Below, piece after piece: positions 7,385-11,385 of a stretch of 64,000 nucleotides of DNA. The DNA comes from Treponema sp. (GTDB taxonomy: Bacteria > Spirochaetota > Spirochaetia > Treponematales > Treponemataceae). The DNA lies in NCBI GenBank assembly GCA_017464425.1, contig JAFUDX010000002.1:62001-126000 (forward strand). The letters run 5' to 3'. The first letter of the stretch is position 1. The number at the start of each line of letters is the position of its first letter. The notes under the pieces are model-generated. The model saw only the letters and a program-made list of their open reading frames with translations. It had not been told where the DNA came from and searched no databases. The position numbers were made by a program, and so were the translations under genes.

Positions 7385-8419
7385 TTACACCGTTCTTCCT
7401 TCTACCGCCGCGTATTTTGAAAGCACTTTCATTAAATCATCAAACTGCGTGGGTGTCAAAGACTGTTCGCCGTCACAGAGGGCTTTTTCGGGATTGTTGT
7501 GAACCTCGATGATGAGTCCGTCCGCGCCAACGGCGACCGCCGCTTTTGCCAAAGTGGGAACCATCCAGCGGATTCCGCATGCGTGGCTTGGGTCGATGAT
7601 GATGGGAAGGTGCGTTTCTTTCTTCAAGTACGGCACGATACTTAAATCCAAGCAATTTCTCGTGTAATTGTCGAATGTGCGGATTCCGCGCTCGCAGAGA
7701 ATCACATTTTCGTTTCCGCTCGCCATGATGTATTCCGCGCTCATTAAGAATTCCTTGACGGTCGCGCTAAGCCCGCGCTTTAAAAGAATCGGATTTTTGA
7801 GCTTTCCGACTTCTTTGAGCAAATCGAAGTTCTGCATGTTTCTAGCTCCAATCTGAATGATGTCCACATCCTCAAAAAGCGGAATCTGGTTGATTGCCAT
7901 AAGCTCGGTGACAATCGGAAGTCCCGTTTCTTTTCGGGCGATTTTGAGCAATTCCAAACCTTCCGCGCCCAAACCCTGGAACGAGTAGGGAGAAGTGCGT
8001 GGCTTGAACGCTCCGCCACGCAAAAATCTCGCCCCGCTCGCTTTGACCGCTTTTGCCACTTCTACGACTTGCTCTTCGGTCTCCACGGAACAAGGCCCTG
8101 CCATAATCGCGCAGGTTTTCCCGTCACCTATGTCAGCACCCAACTTGGAATCAGCCTTTGAAACGACCGAAACCACTGTGTCCTCTGGGTGGAAGCTTCG
8201 GCTCGCCTGTTTGTATGGGGCTTTTACGCGCTGTGCACTCTCAACGATTTCATTCGCCAACAGCTCTTCGGGTGTGATTCGGCTCGTGTCGCCAATAAGA
8301 CCAAGAATCGTGACATCCGCGCCTTTTGACTCGTGAATGTCCAAGCCCCGTGCTTTCAACCCTGATTTGAGTTCCGCAACTTTTTGTGCGTCCGCACCAT
8401 TTTTCAATACAACAATCAT
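7385..8419 (-). CDS. aroF: 3-deoxy-7-phosphoheptulonate (DAHP) synthase, class I-beta
   Basis: 344 residues. It condenses phosphoenolpyruvate and erythrose 4-phosphate, the first step of the shikimate pathway. An N-terminal ferredoxin-like regulatory domain (about 1-70) precedes the TIM barrel, as in Thermotoga-type enzymes. Diagnostic strings are MAGPCSVE (metal Cys), RGGAFKPRTSPYSFQG (phosphate binding), IIDPSHACG and EVHNNPEKALCDGEQSL. ATG 8419 has GAGGAG at ideal distance; a GTG 36 nt upstream is in frame but lies in a repeat element. Upstream lie an intrinsic terminator and a Tyr/Phe-rich leader peptide, so attenuation is likely. This is the key finding of the first 10 kb. Confidence 0.93.
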   Translation of the reverse strand: MIVVLKNGADAQKVAELKSGLKARGLDIHESKGADVTILGLIGDTSRITPEELLANEIVESAQRVKAPYKQASRSFHPEDTVVSVVSKADSKLGADIGDGKTCAIMAGPCSVETEEQVVEVAKAVKASGARFLRGGAFKPRTSPYSFQGLGAEGLELLKIARKETGLPIVTELMAINQIPLFEDVDIIQIGARNMQNFDLLKEVGKLKNPILLKRGLSATVKEFLMSAEYIMASGNENVILCERGIRTFDNYTRNCLDLSIVPYLKKETHLPIIIDPSHACGIRWMVPTLAKAAVAVGADGLIIEVHNNPEKALCDGEQSLTPTQFDDLMKVLSKYAAVEGRTV

Positions 8420-8431
8420 TTTTTTCTCCTC

Positions 8432-8494: not shown

Positions 8495-8526
8495 TAAAAA
8501 AAAGGACTTCCGATTTGGAAGTCCTT
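8495..8526 (-). terminator. Intrinsic terminator in the aroF leader (attenuator, segments 3:4)
   Basis: On the minus strand AAGGACTTCC (8517-8526) pairs perfectly with GGAAGTCCTT (8502-8511) around a 5-nt loop and is followed by eight T. It lies 76 nt upstream of the aroF ATG, downstream of the leader peptide, and in the aroF direction. It would therefore stop transcription before aroF unless disrupted. Confidence 0.88.
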
Positions 8527-8552
8527 GCTAAATGCCAATTGATTTCGCAACT

Positions 8553-8693
8553 TTACGCATTATAGGTGAGCGTTTGACTTCCAGAGCGGACACGAGAAAA
8601 ATAAAAATAGCCATAATAAGAGTAAGCCTTCGTAAAACCGAAACTCTGGCTAGAGAAGCATTTTTCTGTCGCATAAGAAGTGTTGCGATTCAT
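8553..8693 (-). CDS. Putative Tyr/Phe leader peptide controlling aroF
   Basis: A 46-codon frame from ATG 8693 to TAA 8553 contains the run YSYYGYFYF (codons 24-32, positions 8598-8624): five Tyr and two Phe in nine residues. The run lies between CCAGAG (8644-8649) and CTCTGG (8581-8586), which can pair. The second arm continues as TGGAAGTC (8576-8583), which can instead pair with GACTTCCA (8516-8523), the 5' arm of the terminator. This is the geometry of a ribosome-mediated attenuator. The ATG falls at the predicted transcription start of a TTGACA promoter. A 48-codon frame in another register (8674-8528) with a hydrophobic centre is the main alternative. Confidence 0.65.
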   Translation of the reverse strand: MNRNTSYATEKCFSSQSFGFTKAYSYYGYFYFSRVRSGSQTLTYNA

Positions 8694-8700
8694 GAGAATA

Positions 8701-8729
8701 TTTTTATTCTTTTTGCATGAACTTGTCAA
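8701..8729 (-). promoter_or_regulatory. Promoter of the aroF leader
   Basis: On the minus strand a perfect TTGACA (plus coordinates 8724-8729), a 17-nt spacer and TAAAAA (8701-8706). Seven nt separate the -10 from the leader-peptide ATG, so that ORF would be translated from the very 5' end. Confidence 0.65.
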
Positions 8730-8844
8730 GTTCTGCGCGAATATTTTGCAAAAAATTATTGCCAGCACTATTTTATTTCTTCACACTGTTCAATTTTTGT
8801 GAAATTTGGTAAACTATTCCCACTTTTTTTAACGAGGCAATTTC

Positions 8845-11385
8845 ATGTACCCATTTCAGAACATCGAACCAAAATGGCAGAAATATTGGAGCGAGCACAA
8901 GACTTTCCGTGCTACCGAAGACGAATCAATTCCAAAAGAAAAACGACGCTATATCCTTGACATGTTCCCTTATCCGAGCGGGGCGGGCTTGCATGTGGGG
9001 CATCCAGAAGGCTACACGGCGACGGACATTTATTCGCGCTATTTGCGCATGAACGGCTACAATGTCTTGCACCCGATGGGCTACGACGCATTCGGCTTGC
9101 CGGCAGAAAACTACGCGATTAAAACAGGAACGCACCCAGCCACCACCACTTACGAGAACATCGCCCACTTCACCGAGCAGATTAAGGCACTCGGCTTCTC
9201 TTACGATTGGGATCGTCAGGTCATCACTTGCGGTCCTGACTACTACAAGTGGACTCAGTGGATTTTTCTCCAGCTTTTCAAAAAGGGCTTGGCGTATGAG
9301 GCACAAACGCCGATTAACTGGTGTCCGAATTGTCTCACGGGCCTGGCAAACGAAGAAGTCAAAGAAGGTCACTGCGACCGATGCGGTGCAACCGTTACGC
9401 ACAAAGTCATCCGTCAGTGGATTTTAAAAATCACCGCATATGCAGACCGCTTGCTTTCCGATTTGGAAGGCTTGGACTGGCCTGAGAGCGTCAAAGCAAT
9501 GCAGCGAAACTGGATTGGTCGCTCTGAGGGCGCGGAAGTGAACTTCACCGTTGCCGACAAGGATGGAAAACCGACTGAACAGAAACTCACCGTGTACACC
9601 ACGAGATGCGACACGCTCTTTGGCGCGACTTACATGGTCATCTCGCCTGAGCACAAATTGGTAAAAACGCTCACCACACCTGAGCAAAAAGAAGCCGTCG
9701 AAACATATGTCGAAGAAGCTGCAAAAAAATCTGACCTTGAACGCACCGACCTTGCAAAAGACAAAACGGGCGTATTCAGCGGAAGCTACGCAATCAATCC
9801 CGTGAACGGAAAACTGATTCCAATATGGATTGCGGATTATGTTCTCATTTCATACGGCACGGGCGCGATTATGGCAGTTCCGGCTCACGACACGCGCGAC
9901 TGGGATTTTGCGAAAAAATTCAATCTCCCGATTATCGAAGTCTTGAAGAGCGAAGTCGATGTGCAAAAACAGGCATGGACAGAAGACGGAATTCATGTCA
10001 ATTCAGAATTCTTGGACGGACTCAACAAAAAAGACGCAATCGCAAAAATGCTCGAATTTTTGGGCGAAAAAGGAATCGGCAAAAAAGCCGTGAACTACAA
10101 GCTCCGCGACTGGGTTTTCAGCCGCCAGCGATACTGGGGCGAGCCAATTCCGCTCGTTCACTGCCCCGACTGTGGCATCGTTCCCATTCCAGAAGAAGAG
10201 CTTCCGCTTGAACTCCCTGCGGTCAAAACCTATCAGCCGACGGGAACAGGAGAAAGTCCATTGGCAGGAATCGACTCATGGGTGAACTGCAAGTGCCCCA
10301 AGTGCGGAAAACCTGCCCGCCGCGAAACGAACACCATGCCTCAGTGGGCGGGAAGCTGCTGGTACTATCTTCGCTACATCGACCCGCAGAACACCCTCGC
10401 ATTCGCCGACAAAGCAAAGGAAAGCTACTGGATGCCGGTCGATTTGTATGTGGGCGGCGCGGAACATGCGGTTCTTCATCTTCTTTACGCGCGATTCTGG
10501 CACAAAGTCCTTTATGATTTGGGCGTAGTCTCAACAAAAGAGCCGTTCCAGCGGCTCATCAATCAGGGCATGATTACAAGCTTTGCCTTCCAGCGCAAAA
10601 ACAAGTCGCTCGTGGCGGTTGATGCGGTCGAAGAAAAAGACGGCAAATTCTACTCAAAAGAAGACGGCGAAGAATTGGAGCGTGTCATCGCGAAGATGTC
10701 AAAATCGCTCAAAAATGTCGTGAATCCCGACGAAATGATTAAAAGCTACGGCGCGGACAGCGTGCGCATGTACGAAATGTTCATGGGACCGCTCACCGTT
10801 TCAAAACCGTGGAACACGCAGGGCTTAATCGGCGTAAACCGCTTCCTCGACAAAATCTGGAATTTGAGCGAAAAGCCGCTCACCGACATTGACATCAGAG
10901 GAAAACTCGAAAAAAACTTGGCTTCACTCCGAAAAACCTACGCAAAGACGGTCAAAAAAGTAAGCGAAGACACGGCAAACCTCGACTTCAATGTCGCAAT
11001 CAGCCAGATGATGATTTTCGTGAACGAAGCAAGCAAATTCGATTCTCTTCCGCGCGAAATGTGGGAAGGATTCGTGCTTTTGCTCGCTCCCTACGCTCCG
11101 CACTTGGGCGAAGAATTGTGGGAAAAACTCGGTCACAAAGAAAGCTGCGCCTACGCAAAATGGCCTGAATTCAGCGAAGAGTTCTGCAAGGACGACACCA
11201 AAGAATTCCCTGTCATGATTAACGGAAAGCTCCGCGCCAAATTTGAAGCCGCTGCCGACAGCGACAACGCAACGCTCGAAGCAATGGCAAAAGAAACCGA
11301 AGGCTTCAAAAAATTCACCGAAGGAAAGACGGTCGCAAAAATAATTGTCGTTCCGGGTAAACTCGTCAATGTTGTTGTCAAATAA
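8845..11385 (+). CDS. leuS: Leucyl-tRNA synthetase
   Basis: 846 residues, a normal bacterial LeuRS length. It charges tRNA-Leu. The Rossmann fold carries the HIGH-type motif in [16 protein letters not shown] (about residues 44-59) and the KMSKS loop ([10 protein letters not shown], about 617). The CP1 editing domain lies between (about 225-420) with its T-rich [18 protein letters not shown]. The anticodon-binding helices and a short C-terminal domain follow. A GAGG Shine-Dalgarno precedes ATG 8845 and TAAACT at 8811-8816 is a plausible -10. It is divergent from the aroF leader. Confidence 0.97.

What the first reader, a model, noticed from the sequence alone, without database searches (positions are those of the whole stretch)
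8495..8693. Tyr/Phe leader-peptide attenuator controlling DAHP synthase in a spirochaete
Between a TTGACA promoter and aroF (minus strand) there is a 46-codon ORF with YSYYGYFYF (8598-8624), then a perfect 10-bp terminator with eight T (8495-8526). Four segments have the classic exclusive pairings: CCAGAG (8644-8649) with CTCTGG (8581-8586); the same region TGGAAGTC (8576-8583) with GACTTCCA (8516-8523); and the latter with the terminator 3' arm (8502-8511). The Tyr run lies between the first two segments, so a ribosome stalled for charged tRNA-Tyr would favour the 2:3 antiterminator. Known precedent: trp/phe/his attenuators of Enterobacteria. Treponemal use is, as far as I know, undescribed.
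Basis: partly seen in the sequence, partly recalled or inferred. Interest (0 to 1): 0.85.

Follow-up and report, generated by a model that had tools for sequence, protein, structure and literature searches.

The report
Leaderless tyrosine-leader switch for aroF
In Treponema, a mini-gene rich in tyrosine codons and a transcription terminator sit in front of the gene for the first enzyme of aromatic amino acid synthesis; a ribosome that stalls on those codons when charged tyrosine-tRNA runs short is predicted to switch the gene on, and the mini-gene likely starts at the very beginning of the RNA, without the usual ribosome landing site.

Summary
Of 80 stand-alone aroF loci of the genus with enough upstream sequence, 72 carry an aromatic-rich leader ORF plus a strong terminator, and the 2:3 helix covaries (0 of 100,000 permutations of the arms pair as well on average). 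Three corrections. (1) The best -10 match ends 6-10 nt before the leader ATG in 64 of 64 leaders measured, and a strict Shine-Dalgarno word is absent in 65 of 65: the leader is predicted to be leaderless. (2) The 1:2 pairing is not generally conserved; 2:3 is the core. (3) It reaches beyond spirochaetes: 52 of 68 aroF loci from other bacteria, by title mostly Bacillota, have an aromatic-rich ORF upstream (1 of 68 on the other strand), 48 of the 52 with a Shine-Dalgarno word. An AroF tree fits one switch from SD-led to leaderless initiation within spirochaetes, and one transfer of a gene with its SD-led leader. A Leu-rich, leaderless-looking leader precedes leuA. Regulation itself is untested.

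The parts
8724..8729 (-). -35 box TTGACA of the leader promoter
   Evidence: perfect TTGACA in 56 of 64 measured leaders of the genus
8700..8706 (-). -10 region (TAAAAAT; AAAAAT at spacing 18 or TAAAAA at spacing 17), weak in this species
   Evidence: best -10 match ends 6-10 nt before the leader ATG in 64 of 64 measured leaders
8553..8693 (-). leader ORF, 46 codons; ATG at or within a few nt of the predicted transcript start; no Shine-Dalgarno box
   Evidence: 72 of 80 stand-alone aroF loci of the genus have one
8598..8624 (-). aromatic run YSYYGYFYF, predicted ribosome stall zone
   Evidence: aromatic codons concentrate at codons -4 to -13 before segment 2
8676..8681 (-). ACTTCT, predicted partner of segment 2 when no ribosome is present (segment 1 of this clade)
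   Evidence: not general
8644..8649 (-).
8576..8583 (-). segment 2 TGGAAGTC, inside the end of the leader ORF
8555..8573 (-). inner hairpin A of the predicted antiterminator junction (ACGC...GCGT); its last base is the first of the leader stop codon 8553-8555
8525..8550 (-). inner hairpin B of the predicted antiterminator junction (TTGC...GCAA)
8516..8523 (-). segment 3 GACTTCCA, in the terminator 5' arm and first loop base; pairs with segment 2
8496..8526 (-). intrinsic terminator, 10-pair stem and eight-T tract
8426..8430 (-). AGGAG Shine-Dalgarno box of aroF
   Evidence: strict word set before 68 of 72 aroF starts, wider set 72 of 72
7385..8419 (-). aroF, stand-alone type I-beta DAHP synthase, 344 aa
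   Evidence: NF006421 and TIGR01361 above cut-off; the I-beta label is recalled

Best explanation
The 8495-8730 region is most likely a ribosome-mediated transcription attenuator of aroF, whose aromatic-rich (mainly Tyr) leader ORF is predicted to be translated from a leaderless transcript. Shown by sequence: a promoter box next to the ATG, no Shine-Dalgarno box, the aromatic run, segment 2 a median 15 nt after the last aromatic codon of the dense run, the terminator, and 2:3 pairing that is compensated across the genus. Inferred: transcription starts at or just before the A of the ATG and a ribosome loads on the 5'-terminal AUG. With charged tRNA-Tyr (and tRNA-Phe, and tRNA-Trp where Trp codons occur) in supply, the ribosome runs over segment 2 to the stop codon and covers segment 2, or sits between 2 and 3, while segments 3 and 4 form the terminator, so transcription ends. 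When charged aromatic tRNA is short, the ribosome stalls on the run with its front edge just short of segment 2; 2:3 then closes an antiterminator, in many species a predicted three-way junction with two inner hairpins, and aroF is transcribed. Without any translation, this species' segment 2 is predicted to be held by 5' sequence, so the terminator forms; that state differs between clades.
For: 82 stand-alone aroF loci of the genus were examined; 2 end too close to a contig end; of the other 80, 72 have an aromatic-rich leader and a terminator scoring over 24 on my scale (one, L010, added by hand because its run is short). Eight have neither; in seven of these another frame runs to near aroF. 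An ORF with 6 or more aromatics in 12 codons lies on the sense strand in 67 of 79 loci, antisense 3 of 79, upstream of leuA 0 of 28. 2:3: in 40 non-redundant leaders the own pair averages -14.5 and swapped pairs -10.7 kcal/mol, 0 of 100,000 permutations as good on average; 47 of 72 loci have at most 5 of 500 shuffles as good (the window 4). At 12 of 17 helix positions four to six pair types occur (pairs canonical by construction). With sequence up to 12 nt past the last aromatic codon taken out, 2:3 has P over 0.5 before the 3' arm is made in 61 of 72 loci, 0.98 in the window. Aromatic share 0.82 and 0.92 at codons -6 and -7 before segment 2, 0.06 at -14 (segment 2 was sought only after the run, so the fall at -1 to -3 is partly built in). 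Leaderless: gap 6-10 nt in 64 of 64 (2-13 was searched); strict Shine-Dalgarno word before 0 of 65 leaders but 68 of 72 aroF starts. Named species carry it: T. saccharophilum, T. bryantii, T. socranskii. All 5 loci fetched from four other genera of the family have it.
Against: No expression, transcript-start or starvation data. The complete leader favours the terminator at equilibrium (mean P 0.87, 2:3 0.06), so antitermination must be kinetic. 14 of 72 loci have more than 25 of 500 shuffles matching the 2:3 energy, and for a given leader a median of 6 of 39 foreign arms pair as well or better. A structure-blind alignment gave no consensus fold. In 24 of 72 loci, the window among them, the stop codon ends 14-26 nt past segment 2, so a terminating ribosome would not fully cover it. 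The window's -10 is poor. With a wider word set 3 of 65 leaders show AAGG, upstream of the -10 in each. Four of 11 spirochaete loci of the named collection show no leader (L097-L100).
Confidence: 0.82

Rival explanations
1. A classic four-segment attenuator like E. coli trp, in which a 1:2 pause hairpin synchronises polymerase and ribosome and is essential.
For: In the window a 1:2-type pairing is predicted without a ribosome (P 0.73); 24 of 72 loci have P over 0.5; a swap test of 33 leaders gives a weak signal (464 of 50,000 permutations).
Against: In only 7 of 72 loci do at most 10 of 200 shuffles match the 1:2 energy; the 23-codon leaders of the T. bryantii type have little room for segment 1; partners differ between clades.
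Confidence: 0.12
2. The ORF makes a small functional, perhaps membrane, protein and the terminator is incidental.
For: The aromatic core is conserved; N-terminal parts recur within clades.
Against: Length varies from 21 to 46 codons, sequence outside the aromatic run is loose (19 synonymous against 114 non-synonymous codon differences in pairs of six close leaders), its end overlaps a covarying RNA helix, the other frame is open in 5 of 72 loci, and no NCBIfam family matches.
Confidence: 0.03
3. A ligand-binding riboswitch or T-box that needs no translation.
For: Structured leader with a terminator before a biosynthesis gene.
Against: No cis-regulatory Rfam match at gathering score; best weak hit is Phe_leader at 23.4 bits against 55. 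The only T-box among 20 relatives lies on the other strand (L116). The conserved element is a codon run at a near-fixed distance from segment 2.
Confidence: 0.03

Closest known systems
aroR-aroF attenuator of Corynebacterium glutamicum (Neshat et al. 2014, not seen; as described in passages of PMC11802643 and PMC4046766)
   Same: Leader peptide with Phe-Tyr-Phe before a DAHP synthase gene; attenuation by ribosome stalling.
   Different: There Phe limitation acts and Tyr does not; three aromatic codons. Here 380 Tyr, 226 Phe and 53 Trp codons in 72 leader ORFs.
uORFC-13-1 motif of Acholeplasma (PMC8632094, passages read)
   Same: uORF, promoter and terminator immediately before aroF; proposed attenuation.
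   Different: Has an RBS and a Phe-coding U run; 24 representatives; the word Treponema does not occur in the main text.
Leaderless attenuator leaders: S. meliloti trpL (PMC7298713, passages), C. glutamicum ilvBNC (PMC11857589, passages), mycobacterial Cys-rich ORFs (PMC4633059, passages; Canestrari 2020 seen only as cited in PMC9031893)
   Same: Leader ORF begins at the transcript 5' end.
   Different: Other amino acids, other phyla, not aroF.
E. coli trp, pheA, his attenuators (recalled)
   Same: Cognate codon run, alternative 2:3 and 3:4 hairpins.
   Different: SD-led leaders and a required 1:2 hairpin; here segment 2 usually lies in or across the end of the ORF.

Membership tests
Ribosome-mediated leader-peptide transcription attenuator | Short ORF with a run of cognate codons before the structural gene | tested here: met
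   72 of 80 loci; 1 of 534 short ORFs in the window has 5 or more Tyr in 12 codons
Ribosome-mediated leader-peptide transcription attenuator | Intrinsic terminator between leader and gene | tested here: met
Ribosome-mediated leader-peptide transcription attenuator | Alternative antiterminator helix using the terminator 5' arm | tested here: met
   as a prediction: swap and shuffle tests
Ribosome-mediated leader-peptide transcription attenuator | Pathway gene matches the codons | tested here: met
   DAHP synthase
Ribosome-mediated leader-peptide transcription attenuator | Read-through rises when the cognate charged tRNA is short | not testable with these tools
   needs an experiment
Classic four-segment (trp-type) attenuator | Conserved 1:2 hairpin | tested here: inconclusive
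   7 of 72 by shuffles; weak swap signal and 24 of 72 by ensemble
Leaderless attenuator leader | No Shine-Dalgarno word and -10 abutting the ATG | tested here: met
   strict word before 0 of 65 leaders, gap 6-10 nt in 64 of 64; wider words 3 of 65
Leaderless attenuator leader | Transcript 5' end at the AUG | not testable with these tools
   no 5' end data held
Rfam Phe_leader RF01859 | Match at gathering score | tested here: not met
   23.4 bits against 55
T-box | Match at gathering score | tested here: not met
   window and 12 relatives

The most novel reading that the evidence does not exclude
Aromatic-leader attenuation of stand-alone DAHP synthase is an old, cross-phylum system (Bacillota, Fusobacteriota, Spirochaetota) that in the Treponema line changed its initiation mode from SD-led to leaderless while keeping the 2:3 switch. 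A ribosome loading directly on the 5'-terminal AUG takes over the synchronising role of the 1:2 pause hairpin, and one leader reads the pooled charging of tRNA-Tyr, tRNA-Phe and tRNA-Trp. The same bacteria use leaderless leaders as a general device, as at leuA.
Probability: 0.4. Interest if true: 0.78.

Novelty: new variant of a known kind. Interest (0 to 1): 0.63.

Why it matters
As far as the held library shows, it would be the first leader-peptide attenuator described in spirochaetes (a riboswitch candidate before ilvB in Leptospira is in PMC8632094, passages). It is a natural experiment: the same attenuator with SD-led leaders (Bacillota, two loci of another spirochaete family) and with leaderless ones (Treponema and kin), so how polymerase and ribosome are kept in step without a conserved 1:2 hairpin or an SD box becomes testable. 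It also gives a simple rule, aromatic ORF plus terminator before aroF, for finding leader peptides in gut and oral bacteria.

Tried and rejected
The other reading frame (8528-8674) as a protein: open in 5 of 72 loci, rejected. Known RNA families: none at gathering score over the leader or in 12 relatives at E up to 1 (the seven hits there were all below gathering scores). More leaderless attenuators by pattern search of the own genome: 36 hits against 13 for the reversed pattern, but no further attenuator recognised among the 30 of 36 hits that I read. Leaders before the own trpE, hisG, three other HMGL-like and two ilvB-type genes: none seen. Antiterminator pairing in the leuA leaders: not shown, 4 of 25 loci have at most 15 of 300 shuffles as good. 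RNAalifold on a structure-blind alignment: no structure. NCBIfam on five leader peptides from Treponema and Clostridia: no family.

Rows dropped: one listed stand-alone aroF hit (G103) was not fetched, being 32 nt from its contig end; L003 and L021 were too short upstream. In the leuA scan 28 of 30 loci were flagged and I discarded two (L241, L250) on inspection, leaving 26. In one search weak aromatic ORFs of L213, L214, L218 and L221 were judged not to be leaders. The tree used 76 AroF proteins chosen by hand to cover clades.

Full report
What is there. On the minus strand a TTGACA box, a weak -10, a 46-codon ORF with AYSYYGYFYF, a ten-pair terminator with eight T, and aroF with its own AGGAG box follow one another as described. 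aroF is a stand-alone DAHP synthase. The ORF is the only one of 534 short ATG ORFs in the window with five or more Tyr in 12 codons; the region folds far better than shuffles.

Conservation. 115 of 146 genus genomes have a DAHP synthase match. I read the upstream region of 82 stand-alone aroF loci. Two are cut by contig ends. Of 80, 72 carry an aromatic-rich leader and a strong terminator: 65 with ATG, 6 with TTG and a GGAG upstream (L078-L083), 1 cut at its start (L070). Eight have neither: in L033, L059, L064, L068, L069, L075 and L077 another reading frame runs to near aroF, as in an operon; L063 has no such explanation. The second own DAHP synthase, fused to prephenate dehydratase, and six relatives with similarly long frames have no ORF with six aromatics in 12 codons upstream. 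The signal is strand-specific: 67 of 79 loci in sense, 3 of 79 in antisense, 0 of 28 upstream of leuA. The other frame is not conserved (5 of 72).

Antiterminator. In each of the 72 I took the stretch after the aromatic run that pairs best with the terminator 5' arm and loop (-9.0 to -20.5 kcal/mol). Sequences differ widely (TGGAAGTC, GCGGAAGG, TTGCAGAG, GCAGAGTTC, AAGTAATTTGTG) and the terminators change with them. In 40 non-redundant leaders own pairs average -14.5 against -10.7 for swapped ones, with 0 of 100,000 permutations as good on average; a given leader still pairs as well or better with a median of 6 of 39 foreign arms. 47 of 72 loci have at most 5 of 500 shuffles as good, 58 at most 25, 14 more than 25; the window has 4. 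Segment 2 begins a median 15 nt after the first base of the last codon of the dense run, and aromatic codons fill positions -4 to -13 before it, which by general knowledge of ribosome footprints puts the front of a stalled ribosome just short of segment 2. Because segment 2 was sought only after the run, the lack of aromatics right before it is partly built in. Between 2 and 3 the RNA tends to form inner hairpins: 38 of 72 loci form two, against 21% of shuffles, mean z -1.4; the leader stop codon falls in or next to the first one in 45 of 72. A structure-blind consensus fold failed, so the junction is a prediction. At equilibrium the terminator wins; the switch must be kinetic.

Segment 1. Over all loci 1:2 is weak: in 7 of 72 do at most 10 of 200 shuffles match it, 24 of 72 have P over 0.5, and 464 of 50,000 permutations of 33 leaders do as well. 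Leaders of 23 codons have hardly any room for it. It looks like an addition of some clades.

Leaderless start. Searching gaps of 2-13 nt, the best -10 match ends 6-10 nt before the ATG in 64 of 64 leaders measured, the -35 is perfect in 56, and a strict Shine-Dalgarno word is found before 0 of 65 leaders against 68 of 72 aroF starts. With a wider word set it is 3 of 65 (AAGG, upstream of the -10 in each) against 72 of 72. The predicted transcript therefore starts at or within a few bases of the AUG. I found no measured transcript ends.

Beyond the genus. All 5 loci fetched from four other genera of the family have a leader and a terminator (one terminator scores 23.5, just under my cut; L203 has an AAGG upstream of its -10; L204 lacks a clear -35), and so do the 5 further same-genus loci; of 23 loci from other families of the order 3 have a leader, two of them (L207, L208) with an SD word and a terminator seen by eye. 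In the named collection 7 of 11 spirochaete loci with upstream sequence have it, among them T. saccharophilum, T. bryantii and T. socranskii; L097-L100 do not. That collection search kept the best 80 loci of a capped list; 68 of them are not from spirochaetes, by title mostly Clostridia and other Bacillota, one Fusobacteria. Of the 68, 40 have an aromatic ORF plus strong terminator and 52 an aromatic ORF in sense against 1 in antisense; 48 of these 52 have an SD word before at least one in-frame start (several starts were allowed there, one in Treponema). In an AroF tree of 76 proteins the main spirochaete clade (40 rows, 99/97) splits into a four-row group of family f5, two with SD-led leaders and two without a leader, and a 36-row clade (99/92) with 28 leaderless leaders and 8 rows without a leader, these partly from f5. 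The SD-led TTG leaders of some Treponema belong to AroF proteins that group with a Clostridia protein (98/92). This fits one switch from SD-led to leaderless and one transfer of gene and leader together. The root is by midpoint only, and absence of a leader recurs (the tree needs six changes for the leaderless label, seven for absence).

A second case. Upstream of the own leuA lies TTGACT, a -10, and a leaderless-looking ORF MFTLSLLLLIDSHSN before a terminator. 26 of 30 genus leuA loci have such a Leu-rich leader by my reading. The 2:3 pairing there is not shown (4 of 25). It makes leaderless leaders look like a habit of these bacteria.

Known systems. C. glutamicum aroR-aroF reads Phe, not Tyr (passages of PMC11802643, PMC4046766); Acholeplasma has an RBS-led uORF at aroF (passages of PMC8632094); leaderless attenuator leaders exist in S. 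meliloti and actinobacteria (passages of PMC7298713, PMC11857589, PMC4633059, PMC9031893). No leader-peptide attenuator in spirochaetes was found in the listings, and no report of the clostridial aroF leaders in the listing. The library lacks most subscription journals.

Verdict. A new variant of a known kind: an aromatic, mainly Tyr, predicted leaderless attenuator with a conserved 2:3 core. What it senses, and that it switches, are inferred.

Noticed in passing
L240 (G000 contig C20, upstream of leuA at 128935-130599 minus): A second leaderless-looking attenuator: Leu-run leader MFTLSLLLLIDSHSN, promoter next to the ATG, terminator, then leuA; similar leaders in 26 of 30 genus leuA loci by my reading; 2:3 pairing not shown.
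   Followed up: partly
L078-L083; L272-L276: A Treponema subgroup has an aroF that groups with a Clostridia protein in the tree and an SD-led TTG-start Tyr leader: gene and leader seem to have been transferred together.
   Followed up: partly
L102-L169: Aromatic-rich ORFs before aroF in 52 of 68 non-spirochaete loci (48 of the 52 with an SD word), including Clostridioides difficile CD160 and Oscillibacter; five tried leader peptides match no NCBIfam family.
   Followed up: partly
L031 (G000 contig C20:157133-158758): Second DAHP synthase fused to prephenate dehydratase in one 659-codon frame, without an aromatic leader.
   Followed up: partly
L198, L187, L195 (own genome): Other own genes with a TTGAC/TANNNT promoter next to the ATG, one of which looks like trpB (recognised by eye); 36 pattern hits against 13 for the reversed pattern, so leaderless genes may exist here.
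   Followed up: no
window 8845-11385 (+): Divergent neighbour looks like leucyl-tRNA synthetase (recognised by eye from the translation).
   Followed up: no
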